Source: Marinomonas pontica (lineage in GTDB: Bacteria > Pseudomonadota > Gammaproteobacteria > Pseudomonadales > Marinomonadaceae). Taken from it: DNA of 64,000 nt. Made by a program: the position numbers and the translations under genes. The notes under the pieces are model-generated. The model ran no database searches, was not told where the DNA came from, and was given only the letters and a program-made list of their open reading frames with translations. Positions 29,902 through 41,514 of this stretch are shown piece after piece. Position 1 is the stretch's first letter; every line of letters begins with the position of its first letter. Where the stretch lies: contig NZ_JAODTL010000022.1 of NCBI RefSeq assembly GCF_026191375.1, positions 1 through 64,000 of the forward strand. The letters are read 5' to 3'.

Positions 29902-29959
29902 AGCAAATACCATTCTGAATAAAATATTCCTTTTCTTTTTATTCAGAATGGTATTTGCT
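29902..29959. repeat. 23-bp perfect inverted repeat with 12-base loop
   Basis: The arm at 29902-29924 (AGCAAATACCATTCTGAATA...) is the exact complement of 29937-29959, around the pyrimidine-rich loop TATTCCTTTTCT. It sits between the divergent RND operon and uup, so it is not at a gene end. It could be a cruciform, a small repeated element, or a leader hairpin of uup. Confidence 0.85.
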
Positions 29960-30021
29960 GAACCTTCGCTTAGAAGAATGATACTATACGGCCACAAAAT
30001 TTTTACTTTATATGGATAGAT

Positions 30022-31953: not shown

Positions 31954-32562
31954 ATGACGAATAAAATTAAACCAGTTTCATTTATACCGCGCTTTTTTGG
32001 CGCTTTCGGTCAGTTCTTTAAATACATGGGGAGCGGCGACTATGCCGCTCGCTGTCAAACGGTGGATCAAGGCGAGCCATTTGCCTTCGAAGTCGAGCCG
32101 AAAGTCATTACAGAAGAAGTGGAAGTTATTCGTGAAATCGAAGTCGCTGCCCCTGTTTTGGACACGGTTAATGCTGACGGTGCGCATCAGTTATTGCAAC
32201 TGTTGCAACAAGAAGCACGTTTTATCGATTTCATACAAGAAAGCATTGATGATTACAGCGATGCAGACGTAGGTGCGGCATCTCGCCAAATTCACGCTGG
32301 TTGTTCTAAAGTGCTCAAGCAACATTTTACCATTGATGTGGTGTCTCTTGACGTATTGAATACCGCGGCGGAAAGCAGCCGTGTTGAAGTGCCAGCCGGC
32401 TATGACGCTAAGCAAATTAAGCTTGAAGGTCGTGTTGAAGGCGATGGTCCTTATGCTGGCTCATTAATTCACCCAGGCTGGAAGGTAACAGAAACACGTT
32501 TACCAAAAGTAACCAATACAGAAAGTCTGAACATTTTGGCGCCAGCTGAAGTCGAGGTATAA
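31954..32562 (+). CDS. DUF2760 family protein
   Basis: A 202-residue protein recognised as DUF2760 from its features: an N-terminal basic/aromatic helix (IPRFFGAFGQFFKYMGSGDY, ~9-28), a middle helical part LLQLLQQEARFIDFIQESID (~75-94) with the family hallmark of an LLQ-rich start, GCSKVLKQHF, and the conserved ending GPYAGSLIHPGWKV (~165-178). Function is unknown. It lies three bases after uup and four before an Hsp70 gene. DUF2760 genes regularly precede such Hsp70 pairs, so a co-chaperone or adaptor role is plausible but unproven. Confidence 0.85.
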   Translation: MTNKIKPVSFIPRFFGAFGQFFKYMGSGDYAARCQTVDQGEPFAFEVEPKVITEEVEVIREIEVAAPVLDTVNADGAHQLLQLLQQEARFIDFIQESIDDYSDADVGAASRQIHAGCSKVLKQHFTIDVVSLDVLNTAAESSRVEVPAGYDAKQIKLEGRVEGDGPYAGSLIHPGWKVTETRLPKVTNTESLNILAPAEVEV

Positions 32563-32566
32563 ATCC

Positions 32567-34333
32567 ATGAGTCAATATTTCATTGGTATCGACTTGGGTA
32601 CCACGCATTCTGCTGTCTATTTTTCTCCATCTAGCCAAACCGCAAGCGAACCTGATCAAGTAGGGCGCATTCAGCAATTGGCAATTCCGCAGTTTATTGC
32701 GGCTGGTCAAGTGGATGTTCGTCCTTTGCTTCCTTCCTTTGTGTATTTTCCTCACCAAAGCGAATTCCTAGAAAGTGATCTACAACTTCCTTGGGGCAAA
32801 GCAGGCGCTATCGTCGGACAGTTGGCTCGTGAGCTAGGAGCGAGATCTTCTGGCCGATTGGTACAAAGTGCTAAAAGCTGGTTATGCCATTCTCGCGTGA
32901 GTGCGGATGAAGCGGTATTACCTGTGGATGCGCTTGAAGAAGTAGAAAAAGTGTCTCCAGCCCAGGTGACAGAAACCTTATTAGCGCATTTGGTCAGTGC
33001 ATGGAGCCATCAATTTCCTGATGCGCCCATTGCTGAGCAAACCCTTGTTATAACTGTGCCTGCGTCATTTGACCCAGCTGCGCGTGCCATTACCGAACAA
33101 GCCGCAGAAAAAGTTGGTTTGCGTGCACGTTTAATCGAAGAACCGTTAGCGGCGTTTTATGCTTGGCTGAGCGATCAGCCAAATTGGGCCGACAGCCTAG
33201 ATGTTAACGAGCATATCTTGGTTGTCGACGTGGGCGGTGGTACAACAGATTTATCGTTAATCCAAGCGGTAGAGCAGGATGGAGCGCTTGGCCTTGAGCG
33301 TGTAGCGGTTGGTCGTCATATCTTGCTTGGCGGTGACAATATGGATTTGACGCTGACTTACCATTTGGCGGCTCAGCTAGCGCAAAACGGCACGAATCTT
33401 GAACCGTGGCAAATTAGCGGATTGACCCAAGCTTGCCGTGAAGCAAAAGAGCGTTTGTTAACCAATGCGGATTTAGAAGACATGAGCGTTGTTGTGCCAA
33501 GTCGAGGTCGCAGTTTATTTAATAACAGTATCAAAGCCACCCTGACACAAAGCGACGTTCAGCAACTTTTGATCGATGGTTTTTTTCCTCAAGTTCAACT
33601 CGGTGAGCAGGCTCAAAAAACGGCCCGCAGTGGTTTTAGTGCGATCAATTTGGATTACGAAGGTGATCCAGCGATCACTCGTCACATCAGCGAGTTCTTA
33701 GCTCAACACGATGTTAAGCCAAGTAAGATTTTGTTAAACGGCGGTGTGTTTAACGCCAATGTCATTCGCAGTACATTGGAAGCGCGATTGGCTAGTATGC
33801 TGGGTGGCCGTGAAATAACGATGCTGACACCATCACATTTGGATCACGCGGTGGCCAAAGGTGCAACGTATTATGCCCAGGTGCAAGCCGAAGGCGGTGT
33901 TAAAGTAAAAAGTGGACTAGCGGCAAACTACTACATTGGTGTTGCCAGCCCCATGCCGGCGATTCCTGGCATGGCTCCACCGGTTGATGCGATTTGTGTC
34001 GCGCCATTTGGTTTGGAGGAAGGTTCAGAAGAGCAAATGCTGCCGAATGAGTTTTCTCTTGTGGTTGGTGAAAGTGTGACATTCCGTTTCTTCCAATCAC
34101 AACACAGTGATGTCGATTCGGTTGGTAAAGTCATTGCGTCATTTTCTGTTCCCCAGCTAAATGAATTGAATCCTTTATCGATTCGACTTGATGCCGGTCA
34201 CTACCAAGCTGGCGACATGGTGCGAGTCTATCTGACGGCCCGTGTTACTGAATTGGGGCTGCTGCTGTTACAAGCACACGACACCCAATCGGATCTAAGT
34301 TGGACGATTGAGTTTCAAGTCAGGGAGTCTTAA
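32567..34333 (+). CDS. Hsp70 family protein (first of pair)
   Basis: A 588-residue Hsp70-type ATPase, distinct from DnaK. The actin-like nucleotide-binding domain is complete: phosphate 1 motif GIDLGTTHSAVYF (~6-18), connect region LVITVPASFDPAARAITEQA (~160-179), phosphate 2 DVGGGTTDLSLI (~222-233) and the adenosine motif LLNGGVFNANVI (~385). A beta-rich C-terminal part (~430-588) may stand for the substrate domain, but the LLDVTPLSLG-type linker of DnaK is not seen and there is no helical lid. It lies between DUF2760 and a second Hsp70 gene, three bases upstream of the latter. Confidence 0.85.
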   Translation: MSQYFIGIDLGTTHSAVYFSPSSQTASEPDQVGRIQQLAIPQFIAAGQVDVRPLLPSFVYFPHQSEFLESDLQLPWGKAGAIVGQLARELGARSSGRLVQSAKSWLCHSRVSADEAVLPVDALEEVEKVSPAQVTETLLAHLVSAWSHQFPDAPIAEQTLVITVPASFDPAARAITEQAAEKVGLRARLIEEPLAAFYAWLSDQPNWADSLDVNEHILVVDVGGGTTDLSLIQAVEQDGALGLERVAVGRHILLGGDNMDLTLTYHLAAQLAQNGTNLEPWQISGLTQACREAKERLLTNADLEDMSVVVPSRGRSLFNNSIKATLTQSDVQQLLIDGFFPQVQLGEQAQKTARSGFSAINLDYEGDPAITRHISEFLAQHDVKPSKILLNGGVFNANVIRSTLEARLASMLGGREITMLTPSHLDHAVAKGATYYAQVQAEGGVKVKSGLAANYYIGVASPMPAIPGMAPPVDAICVAPFGLEEGSEEQMLPNEFSLVVGESVTFRFFQSQHSDVDSVGKVIASFSVPQLNELNPLSIRLDAGHYQAGDMVRVYLTARVTELGLLLLQAHDTQSDLSWTIEFQVRES

Positions 34334-34336
34334 ACC

Positions 34337-37057
34337 ATGGCGCAGACGGCTTTTCCTTCTACTTATCGCGTAGGCATTGATTTGGGGACAACCAACTGTG
34401 TTGTCTCTTATATTCAAGTATCAAATGATTCGAATGTCAATGCGCCAGAATTATTGCCGATTCCGCAAGTGATGGCGGATGGTTCTGTGCAAGAGTTCAC
34501 GCATTTGCCCAGTGCTATTTATGTTTTGGCCTCCGATGAAGTGGGTAAAATCGATCCGGTTTTGCCTTGGCGTCATCATGATAAAGAGCGCATCGTGGGT
34601 GTTGGTGCGTTGGCATTAGGTCAGCGTCGAGCAGGGCAATTGATACAAAGCGCGAAAAGTTGGTTAAGCCATCGTCAGGTCGATAGGCGCTCGGCTATTT
34701 TGCCTTGGGCGAGTGAGTTCCCGAAAAAGCTCAGCCCTCTTGAGGCCAGCAAGGTTCTTTTATTACACATTAAGCAAAGCTGGAATCATCGTTTTGCCGA
34801 TGCACCGCTAGAGTCACAATCCATCGCGTTAACCTTGCCAGCATCTTTTGATGAAGAGGCGCGAGCGTTAACTTTGGAAGCGGCGAAATTGGCGGGGTTG
34901 CAGGATTTATATCTGCTGGAAGAGCCACAGGCAGCTTGTTATCACTACATCAGTGATGACGAAAAACTCGCTGCATTAGCGGACAAAAAAATGCTTTTGG
35001 TTGTCGATATCGGCGGTGGCACCAGTGATTTTAGTTTGGTGGCGATCAAGCCCACGTCAGCTAAAAACAGCAGCGTATCCCTTAAGCGTGTTGCCGTAGG
35101 CGAACATTTATTGCTGGGTGGCGATAACCTAGATCAAGCCTTGGCGTTTCAGTTAGATCCAAAGCAAATTTCTGCTTTATCAGCCACGCGTTTAGCGGCC
35201 TTGGTTCAGCAAACTCGTCAGGCAAAAGAGACGTTGTTGGGAGAAGGCGCGCCAGACTCGTTAAGCATTACAGTACTTGGTGGTGGTAGTCGATTAATTG
35301 GTGGCTCGCAGAAATTTGATGTCTCCAGAGACGCCTTGTTAGAACAAATTCACAATGGCTTTTTCCCTTTGGTGAATCATGATAACAAGGTGCAAAACAG
35401 CGATTACGCTATGCACACCTTGGGCTTACCTTACGAATCAGATCCTGCTTTTACACGCCATTTAGCGGCGTTCCTGCAGCAGCATAAAACGGCAATTGAA
35501 GCAGCAACAGGCTCTCCTATGCCGGATGCGGTGTTGTTTAATGGTGGTCTGTTTAATAGTCCAGTGTTGAAGTCACGTCTGATAGAACAACTTAATGCTT
35601 GGTCTGCTGAACCGATTCTTGCTTGTACTGCGGACGAACCTAACGACGCGGTGGCCAAAGGTGCGGCCATGTATCTAAACGCTTTAGCAGGCGAAAGTGC
35701 GCGTATTGAAAGTGGTGTGGCGCATAGTTTGTATTTGAAACTTGGTGAAGATCAATTCGTTGGCATCTTGCCAAAGGACACCCTGAAAGGCGAAACCATT
35801 CACTTGGAACAAGAGTTCTTTGTGACTTTGGGTCAGCAAGTTCAGTTTCCTTTGTATCGATCCGACGACCATATCGATTGTGTCGTCGGTAAGGTACGCG
35901 ATCAAAATGGGCTGCATTACATTTCCACCTTGATGACAGAACTAGACGGTTCCATCGAGTCGCAAGAAACGGCGGTAAGCCTATCGGTGCAAATGACCGA
36001 AGTGGGTGTGTTGCAAGTGGTGTTAAACGCCAATAATCAGAAAGACCAGTGGCGTTTGGATTTCTCGACCCATGAGGGTTCCTCACAAGAGAGTGAGCAA
36101 GCTGATGAAAGTGGTTTGCTGCATGCCAATATGGGGCAAGCTGAAGAGCATTTAGCTAAGTGTTTTTCCAGTGCGGGTCAAAAACAAAATCCTGACTTGG
36201 TTAAATCGCTTAAACAGGATTTGGACCAGCTGTTGGGCCATCGAGATAATTGGAATCTTGCCACGTCGCGGCGTTTGGTGGATAAACTGTTAAGTGTGAA
36301 ATCAGGTCGAACAAAAAGTGCTCAGCATGAACGGCAATGGTTGCAGCTCATGGGTTATTGTTTGCGCCCAGGCTTTGGTGCTGAGGATGACTTAGCGCGA
36401 GTTCAGCAAGTAGTTAACATTACTAAAGCAGGCGTCCAGTTCGATACGGCACCCGTTTGGGGGCAGTATTGGACTTTGTATCGCCGAATTGCTGGTGGCT
36501 TATCGGTGGAACAACAAACGCATTTGTTTAAACAGTTTAGCCAGTACTATTCGCCAACAGGGCAGCGCTCTCGTGACAAGATGAAAGCGCTGACGACAAA
36601 ATCCAGCGATGATCTGATCCGTCTAGTTGGTGCGTTAGAGAGTCTGTCTAACGAAGATAAAACCACTGCCATAGATTGGTTACTAAAGCGTTTGCAAAAA
36701 ACGTCTGAGCCAGACACGGCTTGGTGGACAATAGGGCGCATCGCTTCTCGTCATCTTTTATCTGGCAAGCAAGCGCAAAGAATTGCTGAGGATCAGCTCT
36801 TTCCGATTCTAGAAACCGTTCTTAAGGAAGATTGGAAGAAGCGCAAACAAGCCGGATTGGCCGCGGTTTTGATGAGCCAAGTCAGCCTTGGTGAATCCGA
36901 AAAACTGGGCTTTTTACGTAAAAAAGTGGCGAACAAACTCAAAAAGGGCAAATGCCCAGCGCAATGGTTGGAACGGTTAGAAAGTCAAATTGAGATTAAC
37001 AGTGATGAACTGAATGCCTTGGTCGGTGAAAGCTTACCTATCGGTTTGCGTTTATAA
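34337..37057 (+). CDS. Large Hsp70 family protein with DUF3731-type C-terminal extension
   Basis: A 906-residue protein with an Hsp70-type N-terminal ATPase domain (GIDLGTTNCVVSY ~13-25, LPASFDEEARALTLEAAK ~167-184, VVDIGGGTSDFSLV ~224-237, LFNGGLFNSPVL ~399-410) and a beta-rich middle region (~460-585). A helical extension (~600-906) follows, with segments such as WLQLMGYCLRPGFGAEDD, DRVRALW-like helices and WWTIGRIASRHLL, which I assign to DUF3731 from memory. The end KCPAQWLERL is typical of the family. It is the last gene of the uup-DUF2760-Hsp70-Hsp70 unit. Function of this subfamily is unknown. Confidence 0.83.
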   Translation: MAQTAFPSTYRVGIDLGTTNCVVSYIQVSNDSNVNAPELLPIPQVMADGSVQEFTHLPSAIYVLASDEVGKIDPVLPWRHHDKERIVGVGALALGQRRAGQLIQSAKSWLSHRQVDRRSAILPWASEFPKKLSPLEASKVLLLHIKQSWNHRFADAPLESQSIALTLPASFDEEARALTLEAAKLAGLQDLYLLEEPQAACYHYISDDEKLAALADKKMLLVVDIGGGTSDFSLVAIKPTSAKNSSVSLKRVAVGEHLLLGGDNLDQALAFQLDPKQISALSATRLAALVQQTRQAKETLLGEGAPDSLSITVLGGGSRLIGGSQKFDVSRDALLEQIHNGFFPLVNHDNKVQNSDYAMHTLGLPYESDPAFTRHLAAFLQQHKTAIEAATGSPMPDAVLFNGGLFNSPVLKSRLIEQLNAWSAEPILACTADEPNDAVAKGAAMYLNALAGESARIESGVAHSLYLKLGEDQFVGILPKDTLKGETIHLEQEFFVTLGQQVQFPLYRSDDHIDCVVGKVRDQNGLHYISTLMTELDGSIESQETAVSLSVQMTEVGVLQVVLNANNQKDQWRLDFSTHEGSSQESEQADESGLLHANMGQAEEHLAKCFSSAGQKQNPDLVKSLKQDLDQLLGHRDNWNLATSRRLVDKLLSVKSGRTKSAQHERQWLQLMGYCLRPGFGAEDDLARVQQVVNITKAGVQFDTAPVWGQYWTLYRRIAGGLSVEQQTHLFKQFSQYYSPTGQRSRDKMKALTTKSSDDLIRLVGALESLSNEDKTTAIDWLLKRLQKTSEPDTAWWTIGRIASRHLLSGKQAQRIAEDQLFPILETVLKEDWKKRKQAGLAAVLMSQVSLGESEKLGFLRKKVANKLKKGKCPAQWLERLESQIEINSDELNALVGESLPIGLRL

Positions 37058-37101: not shown

Positions 37102-38286
37102 TCACTCGTAGTTCTTTTTCGCTTTGGTGACTTTTTCTAAGTACATTTGAGATTCCGATCTTGGGTGATCGTATCTAAGTTTCTTATACACATTGCTTGT
37201 GGATGTCTGGTTAATTTTGCTCATTGCGCGAGTCCGGTCAGTATCAAATGTTTTTAATACATTGCCAGTGCCGCCGTTATAGGCAGAGATCATCGAATAT
37301 TCTTGGCTAGTTTTGTTTGCGACTTTGGAGAGGTAACGCGTTTGTAAAATGTACAGATAGGCGCTGCCGATGTCGATGTTGTTGGCGGGTGAAAAAAGCA
37401 CTTCTTTGGTCGGTTCGCCGGATTTTTTCTTTACTAAATTATAAACGTCCTGACCTGCTGTCGCAGGTACGACTTGCATCAAACCATAGGCGTTCGCTGG
37501 GCTGACGGCGTATGGGTTAAACGAGCTTTCGGTTTCAATTATGCCGTAAATAAGCGCGGGCGATAAGTTATAGCGTTGCGCCGCGGCAATCACGTATTGG
37601 CTGTATTTTTCTTGCCGAAGGTGTTCGTGTTGGGCGACTAAATTAAACTCTACGGCGTAAACCGTTTTGCCATTGGATGTGGACTTTTTTAGTTTATTGG
37701 ACACTAGATAATTAGAGTAGCGTTCCGCTCGCCAGCGATATTGTACCAATTTGCCATCGTGGTCTATGACTTGAGGGTATAAAAAAGGCACACCTTCGGT
37801 ATTGGGTGCATCGCTGGAAAAAATATCGGTTTTTGTTGGGTCCGCCGTGGTCAGTAATGTGGTGGCTACGGCTTGTTTAAGGGTGTTGAGAGGTTGCTCG
37901 GTCGTTAATGTTTCGACACGCACGGTGCCTTTTTCAAAGTCGACAATGGTTCTTGCCTGATAGTCATTTGTGTACTTAACGTACTTTTTCTTTTCAGGAA
38001 GTTCGCTATTACCTTTCCCCCATTTTTTATTTACTTTCTGATCCAATTCGGCGTACAGCGCTTTGATTGCTTTGATGTCTGCTCTTATCGCGTCTCTGGT
38101 GACTTTTGCTTGCTTGGCAATGGCTTTAACGTCATCAATGTCGTCTGCGTTTTTGATTTGCTTTGAAAGTTGATCCACAGAATCAACAGAGTCAAAGGAC
38201 AATGGCAGGGACTGGCAGCCATTTAATGTTAGTAATAAAAAGCCGATGCATGCGGTGGCGGAGTGTCGGGCAATAGTTTCTAACAT
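37102..38286 (-). CDS. mltC: Membrane-bound lytic murein transglycosylase C
   Basis: MltC cleaves glycan strands of peptidoglycan, leaving anhydromuramoyl ends. I start at ATG 38286 (AAGG upstream), which gives a lipoprotein signal with lipobox LNGC at ~24. The DUF3393 N-terminal domain (~30-215) is followed by an SLT domain (~225-394) with the catalytic Glu in YGIIETESSFNPYAVS, then NAYGLMQVVPATAG and YNGGTGNVLK. The 394-residue length is near that of E. coli MltC. As read, the same frame stays open upstream into the OsmC-YcaO gene up to 39066, but that joined frame is an artefact of the broken upstream gene. Confidence 0.88.
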   Translation of the reverse strand: MLETIARHSATACIGFLLLTLNGCQSLPLSFDSVDSVDQLSKQIKNADDIDDVKAIAKQAKVTRDAIRADIKAIKALYAELDQKVNKKWGKGNSELPEKKKYVKYTNDYQARTIVDFEKGTVRVETLTTEQPLNTLKQAVATTLLTTADPTKTDIFSSDAPNTEGVPFLYPQVIDHDGKLVQYRWRAERYSNYLVSNKLKKSTSNGKTVYAVEFNLVAQHEHLRQEKYSQYVIAAAQRYNLSPALIYGIIETESSFNPYAVSPANAYGLMQVVPATAGQDVYNLVKKKSGEPTKEVLFSPANNIDIGSAYLYILQTRYLSKVANKTSQEYSMISAYNGGTGNVLKTFDTDRTRAMSKINQTSTSNVYKKLRYDHPRSESQMYLEKVTKAKKNYE

Positions 38287-38309
38287 TAAATGACCTTGTG
38301 TATTATCGT

Positions 38310-40495
38310 TTATTTCAATGCGTTTGCTTTGCGAGCATGGTGCAGTTCTCTTATAGCTTTCGATTAAACGCAAATGCGGTTCTATTCCTTCGAGTTGCAT
38401 GCTGGTTTTTGTAAGGCCATAGAATCTGACTTCGCTCGTCACAGAACCGACCACGTTATCCATAATGTCTTTACCAAACATTCGATTGAAGTTATGTCGG
38501 AAGTCCTCTAGTTCCAGCTCTTCATCTAACGTGACTTCCAGTACCGCATTCATTGCTTGGTAAAATAGCCCACGTTGAACGGTGTTGTCGTTAAATTGCA
38601 AGTATTCTCCCACCAGTTCGAGGGCGTCTTCATGAGCACCCAGTGCCAAGTAGATGAGGATTTTAAGTTCCATGATGGTTAACTGACCCCAGACTGTGTT
38701 TTCATCAAACACGATGCCTATCAAGGTGGGAATGTCTGTGTAATTATCAAGTTGGCTTTCTTCAAGTCGATTCACCAGGTTTTCCAGTTGTTCATCGCTT
38801 AAAGAGTGAAGGTTTAAAATGTCTTCACGGTAATCTAATGCTTTGTTGGTGTTGTCCCACACCAGATCTTCCACAGGATAGACTTCGGAGTAATCTGGCA
38901 CCAGAATGCGGCAAGCGGAAGCGCCTAAATCGGTCAATTCCGCGACGTAAACCTCTTTCCCCAGATCTTCAAGTATGGCAAAAAGCGTATTGGCTTCTTC
39001 TTCGTTTGTGCCTGAGAAGTCCCACTCACAAAATTCGTAATCGTGTTTGCTGCTAAAAAGCGCCATGAAATTACGCCAGTTGAATCGATAAAATGTTCCA
39101 CAAAATTTTCTGGCTCGCTAACCGCCATGCTATTGAATGTGGGCTTAGGTACGTCGTTTAGGCCTTCAAAACTACGGCCTTGCATTAATTCCGTTAAGCT
39201 GCGTTCAAGCGCTACTTCAAAGCTTGGGTGGGCGCCAAAAGAAGAAAATACGCCACCTGTTTTCGGATTCATAAGCGTGACGTTCATCACTGGAAATTGT
39301 CCACCTAACGAGGCGTCTTTGACGACAATCGGGAAGCCTTGCTCTTCTAAACCTTGGATGCCAGCCAATATGCTGGGAAATTGCTCCAATACCTGCATAG
39401 GGACATCTGGTAATACGATTTCTTCTTCAATGATTTGACGCTTGACCGCGCGCTCGAAAATTTCAGACAAACATTGGACTTGCGCTTCTAGTAAATTATT
39501 GCCTGCGCTCATGCCATTGCTTAAAAATAAATTCTCGATCAAATTGGAGGGAAATAGACGGTTTCGCCATCAGATTGACGCGTATAGGGAATAGCGCAAA
39601 TGCCACGCGCTTTATTGCCAGAGTTTGTATCAATCAGATGTGAGCCGAACAATTCGTCGTCTGGGTTATAAATATCCAAACAATACTCATCCAGTAAGCC
39701 GACAGGTAGGGCGTCATCTTCCTCCAAAGGGAACCATTTTTCGTTTGGGTAATGAACGAACTCGCTGTTCGCAATCTCTGTCCCAAAAAATTGGTCATTG
39801 TAGAAAAAATTGTTGTTTAAGCGCTCGATAAATTCACCAAGAGCAGAGCACAACGCGCTCTCTTTGCTTGCGCCTTTGCCGTTGGTGAAGCACATAGGCG
39901 AGGCCGCATCGCGAATGTGAAGTGACCATACGTTGGGGACGATGTTGCGCCACGATGAAATTTCGATCTTCATCCCAAGGTCCGCTAACATGGCTGTCAT
40001 GTTAGCAATGGTCTGTTCGAGCGGTAAGTCTTTTCCTAAAATCACTGTGCTTGCTGTACCGTCAGGCTGCGCCATCAGCATGGCATTGGCGTCAGCATCT
40101 AGGTTATCTACATGTTCAATTTTGAACTCTGGGCCAGTCTGTACGACTTTTTTAACCGTACAGCGATCGATGGAGCGCAAAATGCCTTCGCGGTCTTTGT
40201 CGGAAAGGTCGTCTGGTAGCTCGACTTGAATTTGAAATATTTGGTTATAGCGATCTTCTGGGTCGACGATATTATTCTGCGACAACCGAATGTTGTCCGT
40301 AGGGATGTCACGCGCCTTGCAATACACCTTAACAAAATACGCAGCGCACAACGCTGAGGACGCTAAGAAATAATCAAATGGACTGGGTGCAGACCCATCA
40401 CCTTTGTAGCGGATCGGTTGATCGGCGGTGATGGTGAAATCATCAAACTTGGCTTCGAGTCTGAGATTGTCGAGAAAATTAACTTTGATTTCCAT
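38310..40495 (-). pseudogene. OsmC-YcaO fusion protein, frame broken at three places
   Basis: The restored protein has ~728 residues. The N-terminal OsmC-like redox domain (~1-140) starts MEIKVNFLDNLRLEAKFDDF and has the Cys in SSALCAAYFVKVYC. The YcaO domain follows (~180-560), with FTNGKGASKESALCSALGEF and the ATP/Mg-binding SNGMSAGNNLLEAQVQCLSE. A helical tail (~580-728) comes last. YcaO enzymes activate amide bonds with ATP; this OsmC-linked type has no known substrate. Breaks lie at 39541-39545 and 39055-39059 (one base missing each) and at 38351-38352 (one base extra). Correcting them yields one open frame ending RELHHARKANALK. The errors look technical, but true decay cannot be excluded. 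Confidence 0.82.
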
Positions 40496-40689
40496 TGGAT
40501 TTGTCCACTTTGTAGGGCGTGTGTGCAGGGGATTTACCAAGCAAGTGCGCTGGTAATGATCAATGCGGCAATTATCTTCGATAAGTGGGGGCAGAGTAAA
40601 ATCAAATTGGCTATTTGGACAACAAATGCTTCCTCTTACCGTGTTTTTAACGCTAAAAAGGCAAAAGAAAGCATTCTGCTGGAAAGACG

Positions 40690-41514
40690 CTAGCCTCTTA
40701 CTCGTTGAATGTTGATTAAGATAGGGCTTCCTGTCATAGGATCGGGAATAAGATCGCAATCAACACCATACAGTTCACGAACAAGTTCTTTGGTCATGAT
40801 GTCTTTAGGGCTGCCTTGGGTGAGTATTTCTCCTGATTTCATGGCAATTATGTGGTCGGAATAACGGCATGCGCTTGGTAAATCATGGACCACCATAGCT
40901 AAGGTTTTACCCTGTTTTGATAAGGTTCGGATCAGCTCAAACACTTCGATCTGATGACCCAAATCCAGAGCTGAGGTTGGCTCGTCTAGCAAAAGCAATG
41001 GCGTTTCTTGTGCTATCGACATCGCAATCCAAGCCCGTTGCCTTTGCCCGCCAGATAAGGTGTCTAGTAGGCGGTCTTTTAGACCAATCAAATCCGCCGC
41101 TTTTAATGCGTAATCAATCGCATCTTGGTCATTCATCGCCCATTGCTTTAAAGCACTTTGATGTGGATGGCGACCAAAGCGGATTAGCTCTTCAATGGTA
41201 ATACCATCAGGTGCCAACGTATCTTGGGGTAATAAGGCTAAACGACGCGCTACCTCTTTCGAAGGAAGAGAATGAATGTCTTTGCCATTAAGTAATACCA
41301 CGCCAGAGCTTGGCGCATGGACGCGAGATAAACCATTGAGCAATGTCGACTTTCCGCACCCATTTGGCCCTACTATCGCGGTTACTTGACCTTCTGGCAG
41401 CGTGACATTGAGTCGTTCAATAATCGTGGTCTTGCCATGTTTAAGGGTAAGCTGCTCTGCTTCTAGGCGAGCATAAGAGGAGGAGTGGGTGTGCTGAAAA
41501 GCAGAGGCCGTCAT
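40690..41514 (-). CDS. Iron-siderophore ABC transporter, ATP-binding protein
   Basis: A 274-residue cytosolic ATPase of the FecE/FepC type. It shows Walker A GPNGCGKST (~50-58), Q-loop LLPQDTLAPDG (~94), signature LSGGQRQRAWIAMSIAQE (~155), Walker B LLLLDEPTSALDLGHQ (~174) and the H-loop VVHDL (~206). The signature with AWIAM rather than ALIAR is typical of siderophore importers. Its start overlaps the upstream permease gene by four bases. It is the last gene of the four-gene importer operon. Confidence 0.92.
   Translation of the reverse strand: MTASAFQHTHSSSYARLEAEQLTLKHGKTTIIERLNVTLPEGQVTAIVGPNGCGKSTLLNGLSRVHAPSSGVVLLNGKDIHSLPSKEVARRLALLPQDTLAPDGITIEELIRFGRHPHQSALKQWAMNDQDAIDYALKAADLIGLKDRLLDTLSGGQRQRAWIAMSIAQETPLLLLDEPTSALDLGHQIEVFELIRTLSKQGKTLAMVVHDLPSACRYSDHIIAMKSGEILTQGSPKDIMTKELVRELYGVDCDLIPDPMTGSPILINIQRVRG

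What the first reader, a model, noticed from the sequence alone, without database searches (positions are those of the whole stretch)
31954..37057. DUF2760 plus two non-DnaK Hsp70 proteins behind uup
Four genes spaced three to four bases apart: an ABC-F ATPase, DUF2760, an Hsp70-like ATPase without DnaK's helical lid, and a 906-residue Hsp70-like protein with a long helical C-terminal part. Two different Hsp70-like ATPases side by side with a small partner suggest a dedicated chaperone machine of unknown client. To my knowledge it has no described function.
Basis: partly seen in the sequence, partly recalled or inferred. Interest (0 to 1): 0.6.

Follow-up and report, generated by a model that had tools for sequence, protein, structure and literature searches.

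The report
Undescribed three-gene Hsp70 chaperone cassette
Three neighbouring genes, two unusual Hsp70-type chaperones and a small, probably membrane-bound partner, are inherited together across many bacteria and look like one uncharacterised protein-handling machine.

Summary
DUF2760, a lidless Hsp70 (here HspA) and a 906-residue Hsp70 whose lid is replaced by a helical array (HspB, DUF3731) lie 3-4 bases apart. They behave as one evolutionary unit. In 398 genomes of the window's phylum, DUF2760 occurs in 28, HspA/B-type Hsp70s in the same 28 and no other, and DUF3731 in 27 of those 28 and no other. In another phylum 22 of 140 genomes have DUF2760, and all 22 have DUF3731, in six of them not close by. 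DUF2760, the unit's marker, is core in the window's genus, Marinomonas (46 of 48), and in a genus that is most likely Vibrio (143 of 148). Catalytic ATPase residues are invariant in both Hsp70s. The uup link is Marinomonas-only. DUF2760 has an N-terminal transmembrane segment in some lineages and a weaker segment elsewhere, so I propose a membrane-tethered two-Hsp70 machine. Its client is unknown; nothing biochemical is shown. No paper in the held library names DUF2760 or DUF3731. In V. cholerae the operon is probably VC1375-VC1373; HapR activates the VC1375 promoter (PMC10328515).

The parts
31954..32562 (+). DUF2760 protein (202 aa), small partner and proposed membrane tether/adaptor
   Evidence: PF10816 E=9e-46; of 28 DUF2760-positive genomes, 28 have HspA/B-type Hsp70s and 27 have DUF3731
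31981..32067 (+). N-terminal aromatic/amphipathic helix-turn-helix of DUF2760 (residues 10-38), proposed membrane-binding segment; its place is taken by transmembrane-grade segments in other lineages
   Evidence: model helices 10-26 and 28-38; hydropathy across 87 sequences; membrane binding is inference
32533..32559 (+). C-terminal tail of DUF2760 (ILAPAEVEV), proposed docking peptide
   Evidence: A198 and E201 invariant, A196, E199 and V200 at least 90% in 88 sequences, yet pLDDT below 50
32567..34333 (+). HspA: Hsp70-type ATPase with beta domain and no helical lid (588 aa)
   Evidence: PF00012 72.9 bits; homologous to HspB residues 1-585 over 592 columns; catalytic residues invariant in 63 sequences
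34337..37057 (+). HspB: Hsp70-type ATPase plus beta domain plus long helical C-terminal array (906 aa)
34358..36076 (+). HspB nucleotide-binding plus SBD-beta-like region (residues 8-580), DnaK-like
   Evidence: VIA-align Z 32.6, 469 aligned, rmsd 3.9 to ATP-bound DnaK 4b9q_A, model residues 9-578
36131..37024 (+). HspB helical array (19 helices, residues 599-896) in place of the DnaK lid; overlaps DUF3731/PF12531 (residues 661-906)

Best explanation
The three genes encode one ATP-driven protein-remodelling machine that works at the cytoplasmic face of the inner membrane. DUF2760 is the tether and adaptor: its N-terminal segment sits in or on the membrane, its conserved domain faces the cytoplasm, and its conserved C-terminal tail docks on one of the Hsp70s. 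HspA is a lidless Hsp70 that binds client segments briefly under ATP control. HspB is its paralogous partner, an Hsp70 with a helical array in place of the lid. By analogy with the eukaryotic Hsp70-Hsp110 pair, HspB would hold clients and/or drive nucleotide exchange on HspA. SHOWN here by sequence: gene identities, the unit's co-inheritance, intact ATPase residues, and transmembrane-grade segments of DUF2760 in some lineages. INFERRED: topology, membrane binding in Marinomonas, complex formation, division of labour, and chaperone action. The client is unknown; a membrane or envelope protein is my guess from the tether.
For: Co-occurrence and synteny. HspB is kept when moved away: in Comamonas-type genomes and the Deltaproteobacterium of L137 and in six genomes of the second phylum, five of them with over 8 kb of downstream sequence free of HspB. 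Parallel divergence of the three proteins: Mantel r 0.91-0.96 over 50 loci, 0.84-0.90 within 32, which shows common inheritance rather than contact. Catalytic residues invariant. HspB model superposes on DnaK NBD+SBD-beta. 16 of 87 DUF2760 N-termini have transmembrane-grade hydropathy (at least 1.9 over 19 residues): 9 of 9 Vibrio-like, 6 of 6 of family f43, and one Methylococcus MAG. The C-terminal tail is conserved though not folded in the model.
Against: No biochemical evidence. The other 71 of 87 DUF2760 N-termini peak at 0.69-1.72; Marinomonas is lowest (0.69-0.97), and its peak is not always in the helix I propose. In 78 of 87 sequences the hydropathy peak is not above shuffles of the same N-terminus at p<=0.05. 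The DUF2760 model is mediocre (pLDDT 73, pTM 0.49) with no fold match. No complex was modelled, and HspA was not modelled. The J-domain contact residue of DnaK (R167) is not kept (R in 8 of 63 HspA, 38 of 68 HspB), so a normal DnaK-type cycle is not assured. The unit is dispensable: 370 of 398 genomes lack it, as do near-complete members of both core genera (G435; G486 and G527).
Confidence: 0.45

Rival explanations
1. A soluble, general stress chaperone pair that backs up DnaK; DUF2760 is a co-chaperone whose N-terminus matters little.
For: Hsp70 fold and ATPase residues. A conserved element upstream of DUF2760 in the Vibrio-like genus fits a sigma-32 heat-shock promoter (CTTGAA-N13/14-CCCCAT-like) in 8 of 9 loci, against a chance of about 0.03 per 350-base upstream stretch; the loci are related, so they are not nine independent cases.
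Against: The same element also contains an extended -10 sigma-70 motif (TGnTAnnAT in 7 of the 8), and the VC1375 promoter works with housekeeping polymerase in vitro (PMC10328515). In Marinomonas, f43 and the other lineages only 4 of 98 upstream stretches reach p<=0.05 against shuffles, about chance; upstream of uup nothing convincing either. Transmembrane-grade segments recur in DUF2760.
Confidence: 0.25
2. A reactivase or assembly factor: Hsp70-like ATPases that remodel one enzyme or membrane complex, like diol dehydratase reactivases or HscA, not a general chaperone.
For: A small partner plus Hsp70-fold ATPases; HscA is the best-scoring named Hsp70 model for both (88 and 85 bits). DnaK J-domain contact R167 not conserved.
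Against: Scores are about a seventh of the lower HscA cut-off, 620 bits. No enzyme gene recurs as a neighbour across lineages.
Confidence: 0.2
3. An anti-phage defence or mobile-element cassette.
For: DUF2760-HspA beside anti-phage genes on a Thiodictyon plasmid and the trio beside conjugation genes on a Bradyrhizobium plasmid; weak PADLOC candidate match, 27 and 33 bits.
Against: DUF2760 is core in two genera, 46 of 48 and 143 of 148 genomes. No hit in 50,697 phage records; in viral contigs 26 stretches matched a pattern but none encodes a relative.
Confidence: 0.04
4. A ribosome- or translation-linked module with Uup.
For: Three-base spacing to uup in the window and adjacency in 14 of 14 other Marinomonas loci.
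Against: No Uup-sized gene adjoins the trio in the non-Marinomonas loci read (26 stretches, 68; some are cut short upstream).
Confidence: 0.04

Closest known systems
DnaK (bacterial Hsp70)
   Same: NBD and SBD-beta fold and order, for HspB by model, for HspA by homology to HspB; catalytic residues
   Different: Far below DnaK model cut-offs (55-67 bits against 648-823); HspA has no lid, HspB has a 300-residue helical array instead; J-contact R167 not kept
Eukaryotic Hsp70-Hsp110 (Sse1) pair
   Same: Two paralogous Hsp70-fold ATPases, one with an enlarged C-terminal part; Sse1 is among HspB's Foldseek matches (2qxl_A, E 5e-20)
   Different: Matched within the general Hsp70 list, behind DnaK; heterodimer not shown; DUF2760 has no counterpart
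Ssz1 of the ribosome-associated complex (lidless Hsp70)
   Same: Lidless Hsp70 with a dedicated partner (recalled); 6sr6 is among HspB's Foldseek matches
   Different: HspA keeps its catalytic residues; DUF2760 shows no J-domain match in Pfam; no ribosome-linked gene neighbours outside Marinomonas were seen
HscA and YegD (specialised bacterial Hsp70s); HscC not compared
   Same: Specialised Hsp70s outside DnaK; HscA is the best-scoring named relative
   Different: About a seventh of the lower HscA cut-off (88 and 85 bits against 620) and under a sixth of PRK11678 (33 and 52 against 331; the name YegD is recalled); the window's genome has a separate YegD-like 454-aa protein (name by recall)
Pfam DUF2760 (PF10816) and DUF3731 (PF12531)
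   Same: Members by sequence
   Different: Both are names without a function

Membership tests
Hsp70 superfamily (PF00012) | score over Pfam gathering cut-off | tested here: met
   72.9 and 59.1 bits against 20.6
Hsp70 superfamily (PF00012) | catalytic ATPase residues (DnaK D8, T11, K70, E171, D194, T199, D201; roles recalled) | tested here: met
   identical in 63 of 63 HspA and 68 of 68 HspB
DnaK | DnaK model cut-offs (NCBIfam) | tested here: not met
   67 and 58 bits against 648 (NF001413); 66 and 55 against 823 (TIGR02350)
DnaK | helical SBD-alpha lid | tested here: not met
   HspA ends after the beta domain by alignment; HspB has a 300-residue helical array with DUF3731 there
DnaK | J-domain contact R167 | tested here: not met
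   R in 8 of 63 HspA and 38 of 68 HspB
DnaK | allosteric linker VLLLD with D393 | tested here: inconclusive
   alignment gapped or unreliable there
HscA | HscA model cut-offs | tested here: not met
   88 and 85 bits against 620 (NF003520); 83 and 84 against 709 (TIGR01991)
Hsp110 / Sse1 type | Hsp110-specific structure and nucleotide-exchange contact with Hsp70 | not testable with these tools
   only general Hsp70-fold matches were seen; complexes could not be modelled
DUF2760 (PF10816) | score over gathering cut-off | tested here: met
   155.2 bits against 25; 88 of 88 aligned sequences match the family (E up to 1)
DUF3731 (PF12531) | score over gathering cut-off | tested here: met
   246.4 bits against 25; 34 of 34 aligned C-termini match the family (E up to 1)
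anti-phage defence | match to a described defence family with sporadic distribution | tested here: not met
   only 27 and 33 bits to one candidate model; DUF2760 core in two genera

The most novel reading that the evidence does not exclude
A bacterial Hsp70-Hsp110-like heterodimer held at the inner membrane by a new class of Hsp70 regulator (DUF2760), which replaces J-domain protein and exchange factor and acts on membrane or secreted clients.
Probability: 0.2. Interest if true: 0.82.

Novelty: new variant of a known kind. Interest (0 to 1): 0.57.

Why it matters
Hsp70s are among the best studied chaperones, yet I found no paper on this three-gene Hsp70 unit, whose marker DUF2760 is core in Marinomonas and in a genus that is most likely Vibrio, frequent among Burkholderiales in the 80 best named loci and present in what I take to be a second phylum. 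In the genomes sampled, each of the two Hsp70s is kept wherever the other is, with two exceptions at contig ends, which makes the question 'why two different Hsp70s together?' testable in bacteria. If DUF2760 proves to be a membrane tether or a J-domain substitute, it would be a new way to place and control an Hsp70.

Tried and rejected
Uup as part of the system: rejected, Marinomonas only.

Other conserved neighbours: I clustered the ORFs of 108 loci and listed families found in at least 6 of the 94 non-Marinomonas loci. Apart from the trio and a reverse-strand shadow ORF (49 loci), the commonest were in 21 and 19 loci (LysR-like and GGDEF-like by recall): large families or confined to some groups. 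Their position was not compared.

HapR site of VC1375 (PMC10328515): not found in the Vibrio-like loci read; best matches have 8 or more mismatches of 22. One search took 30 loci, but my script did not turn those lying on the minus strand; only 13 of 30 gave a valid start. One search scanned both strands of 27 additional loci (whole stretch, not only upstream) and found CTTGAW-N2/3-TGnTA in 15 of 27.

Sigma-32 promoter: suggestive in the Vibrio-like genus (8 of 9; shuffle p 0 to 0.083), ambiguous with an extended -10 sigma-70 promoter, not seen elsewhere.

Known fold of DUF2760: 0 of 96 Foldseek matches at E<=0.001; best VIA Z 4.3. PDB sequence searches with the DUF2760 and DUF3731 profiles gave only weak hits, E 1.7 and 0.33 at best. 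HEAT repeats in DUF3731: 1 of 34 members at E 0.048, not accepted. The helical part of HspB was not folded or searched alone (both prediction jobs used).

Linker comparison with DnaK: alignment unreliable, dropped. J-domain genes elsewhere in the genomes were not searched for.

Rows left out: DUF2760 hydropathy, one of 88 sequences (L070) missed by my pattern. Alignments hold the window plus 87 of 107 usable DUF2760, 67 of 92 HspB and 62 of 105 HspA sequences, thinned by hand. Mantel test: the 50 loci present in all three alignments.

Papers seen only as listings or passages: PMC6413534 (a 'DnaK-related protein' in a table; not tied to this trio), PMC9608740 (VC1374 is a strain name there), and term searches in PMC8265645 and PMC11019930, in which the passages shown do not mention this family.

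Not tested by name or sequence: that genus g27 is Vibrio (it rests on genomes in two or three large contigs, a divergent CHASE-GGDEF neighbour and the VC1375<>VC1376 arrangement in PMC10328515); that VC1373-VC1375 is this trio; and that the genomes are of another phylum (locus L137 is titled Deltaproteobacteria).

Full report
WHAT IS THERE. HspA and HspB are my labels. DUF2760 matches PF10816 (155 bits); HspA matches Hsp70 (72.9 bits) without DUF3731; HspB matches Hsp70 (59.1 bits) plus DUF3731 over its last 246 residues. The upstream gene is Uup-like, 879 bits against a 900-bit cut-off. The 12 closest named loci are all Marinomonas, so the window is most likely from that genus. Its genome gives 7 Hsp70-profile matches in 6 proteins, one of them DnaK.

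ONE UNIT. In a sample of 398 genomes of the window's phylum (Pseudomonadota, by inference), DUF2760 was found in 28, DUF3731 in 27 of these 28 and in no other, and HspA/B-type Hsp70s (E<=1e-60) in the same 28 and no other, twice in 26 of the 28. The case without DUF3731 (G026) has its HspA ending 81 bases from a contig end. I read the loci of the 27 genomes other than the window's: in 25 of 27 the order DUF2760-HspA-HspB is on one strand of one contig; in G053 HspB lies on another contig, probably split in two frames; in G026 the contig ends. Of 80 named loci, DUF2760 is followed by HspA in 80, and HspB was recognised in the stretch in 70. Of the ten others, three show a cut-off second Hsp70 (L118 and L134 at contig ends, L137 at the end of my stretch). 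I then searched nine of these ten genomes (L133 is not held) plus that of L125 and one plasmid: DUF3731 is present in 9 of 11; the misses are a MAG with a truncated locus (L104) and the plasmid record alone.

SECOND PHYLUM. In the phylum of the Deltaproteobacterium locus L137, 22 of 140 genomes have DUF2760 and 23 of 140 have DUF3731, including all 22; the extra one lies 318 bases from a contig start. Of 21 regions read there, HspA adjoins or overlaps DUF2760 in 21 and HspB is in the stretch in 15. In the other six genomes HspB is elsewhere but present; in five of the six more than 8 kb of downstream sequence holds no HspB, while in G662 the contig ends. So DUF2760-HspA is the tightest pair, and HspB is kept even when unlinked, which operon hitch-hiking does not explain. 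Fisher tests give 5e-41, 1e-43 and 9e-25; counted by genus, 1e-18. Divergence of the three proteins runs in parallel (Mantel r 0.91-0.96 over 50 loci; 0.84-0.90 within 32), as expected of genes inherited together.

HOW COMMON. With DUF2760 as the marker, the unit is core in the window's genus, 46 of 48 genomes, one of the two misses being 77% complete, and in genus g27, 143 of 148, two of the five misses being genomes of about 1 Mb and one 79% complete. Against indispensability: 370 of 398 genomes of the phylum lack it, as do 0 of 14 control genomes' worth of hits, E. coli included, and three near-complete, full-sized genomes within the two core genera (G435, G486, G527).

UUP IS A NEIGHBOUR, NOT A MEMBER. 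uup adjoins the trio in the window and in 14 of 14 other Marinomonas loci. No Uup-sized homologue adjoins it in the other stretches read (26, 68, some cut short upstream); the weaker, more distant hits are other ABC ATPases by length. In the one g27 locus tested, the divergent neighbour is a CHASE-GGDEF protein.

THE TWO HSP70S. They are paralogues: 592 aligned columns, 33% identity, E 1e-166. Positions equivalent to DnaK D8, T11, K70, P143, E171, D194, G196-198, T199, D201 and G228-229 are identical in 63 of 63 HspA and 68 of 68 HspB (roles recalled), so both should hydrolyse ATP. The J-domain contact R167 is not kept (8 of 63; 38 of 68), and N170 is E in all. The HspB model (pLDDT 82.6, pTM 0.61) superposes residues 9-578 on ATP-bound DnaK (4b9q_A, Z 32.6, 469 aligned, rmsd 3.9). 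Residues 599-896 are 19 helices in the place of the lid; that part was not searched alone. HspA was not modelled; it lacks a lid by alignment. Neither belongs to DnaK, HscA or PRK11678 (YegD, recalled) by curated cut-offs.

THE SMALL PARTNER. DUF2760 has a variable N-terminus and a conserved C-terminal domain. In 9 of 9 Vibrio-like sequences the N-terminus is one transmembrane-grade segment followed by positive residues and a V-E-K-rich spacer; 6 of 6 f43 sequences and one Methylococcus MAG also have transmembrane-grade segments; the other 71 of 87 have weaker ones (0.69-1.72), Marinomonas the weakest. Against this, the peak hydropathy exceeds shuffles at p<=0.05 in only 9 of 87. The last residues (APAEVEL) are nearly invariant although the model leaves them unfolded, which suggests a docking peptide. 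No known fold was matched.

REGULATION AND LITERATURE. 'DUF2760' and 'DUF3731' occur in 0 papers of the held library. V. cholerae VC1373 and VC1374 are called DnaK-related proteins (PMC5816637 and PMC9201469, passages), the latter in an operon VC1373-1375. The intergenic region VC1375<>VC1376 is listed as a HapR target, and HapR activates the VC1375 promoter in vivo and, with housekeeping polymerase, in vitro (PMC10328515, passages and section 6). VC1374 is listed among in-biofilm repressed genes (PMC9201469, passages) and, with log2 fold change -2.68, in a table on wild type and vc1639 mutant of a polymyxin B study (PMC5636140, one passage). That these loci are this trio is inference. Upstream of the trio in the Vibrio-like genus a conserved element reads as a sigma-32 promoter in 8 of 9 loci, but 7 of these 8 also hold an extended -10 motif.

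MECHANISM. I commit to a membrane-tethered two-Hsp70 machine (0.45 overall): the unit is near certain (about 0.95), ATP cycling by both likely (0.8), chaperone-type action likely (0.75), membrane tethering likely (0.65). An Hsp110-like role of HspB is analogy. Rivals: soluble stress chaperone, specific reactivase, defence, ribosome module.

NOVELTY. The fold is Hsp70 and both DUF names exist; the three-part system and its conservation appear undescribed in the library searched, so it is a new variant of a known kind.

Noticed in passing
window 37102-40759, - strand: The OsmC-YcaO gene is split over three overlapping frames (40759-39539, 39542-38934, 39066-37102) and the last runs on into an MltC-type lytic transglycosylase lipoprotein; in a Marinomonas relative (L066) YcaO is one 728-aa ORF and MltC a separate 395-aa ORF. 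Probably assembly indels or gene decay.
   Followed up: partly
L144 (Bradyrhizobium barranii plasmid pCC829_3), 11719-17128: The trio (DUF2760 and two Hsp70 genes as annotated) sits about 2 kb downstream of the trb conjugation genes of a plasmid typed as conjugative, so it can probably move horizontally.
   Followed up: no
L146 (Thiodictyon plasmid pTs485), 1-12234: DUF2760-HspA without an adjoining HspB lies next to anti-phage genes (DUF499, DUF3780, DUF1156, PLD); no DUF3731 on that plasmid, chromosome not searched.
   Followed up: partly
window about 29950-30021, upstream of uup: In several Marinomonas species the uup promoter region holds a conserved inverted repeat (CCTTC-N5-GAAGG or close) just before a TGATACTATA-like -10 element; it may control the whole uup-trio operon.
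   Followed up: no
L045 10553-13473, and genomes of L083 and L099 (Comamonas): In Comamonas-type genomes HspB is separated from HspA by inserted genes (a porin and a transporter-like protein in L045; both labels by recall), yet is retained.
   Followed up: partly
C-terminus of HspB, window 37025-37054: The last residues of HspB (GESLPxGLxL type) are also strongly conserved (G897, P901, G903, L904 invariant in 68 sequences) and unfolded in the model, like the DUF2760 tail.
   Followed up: no
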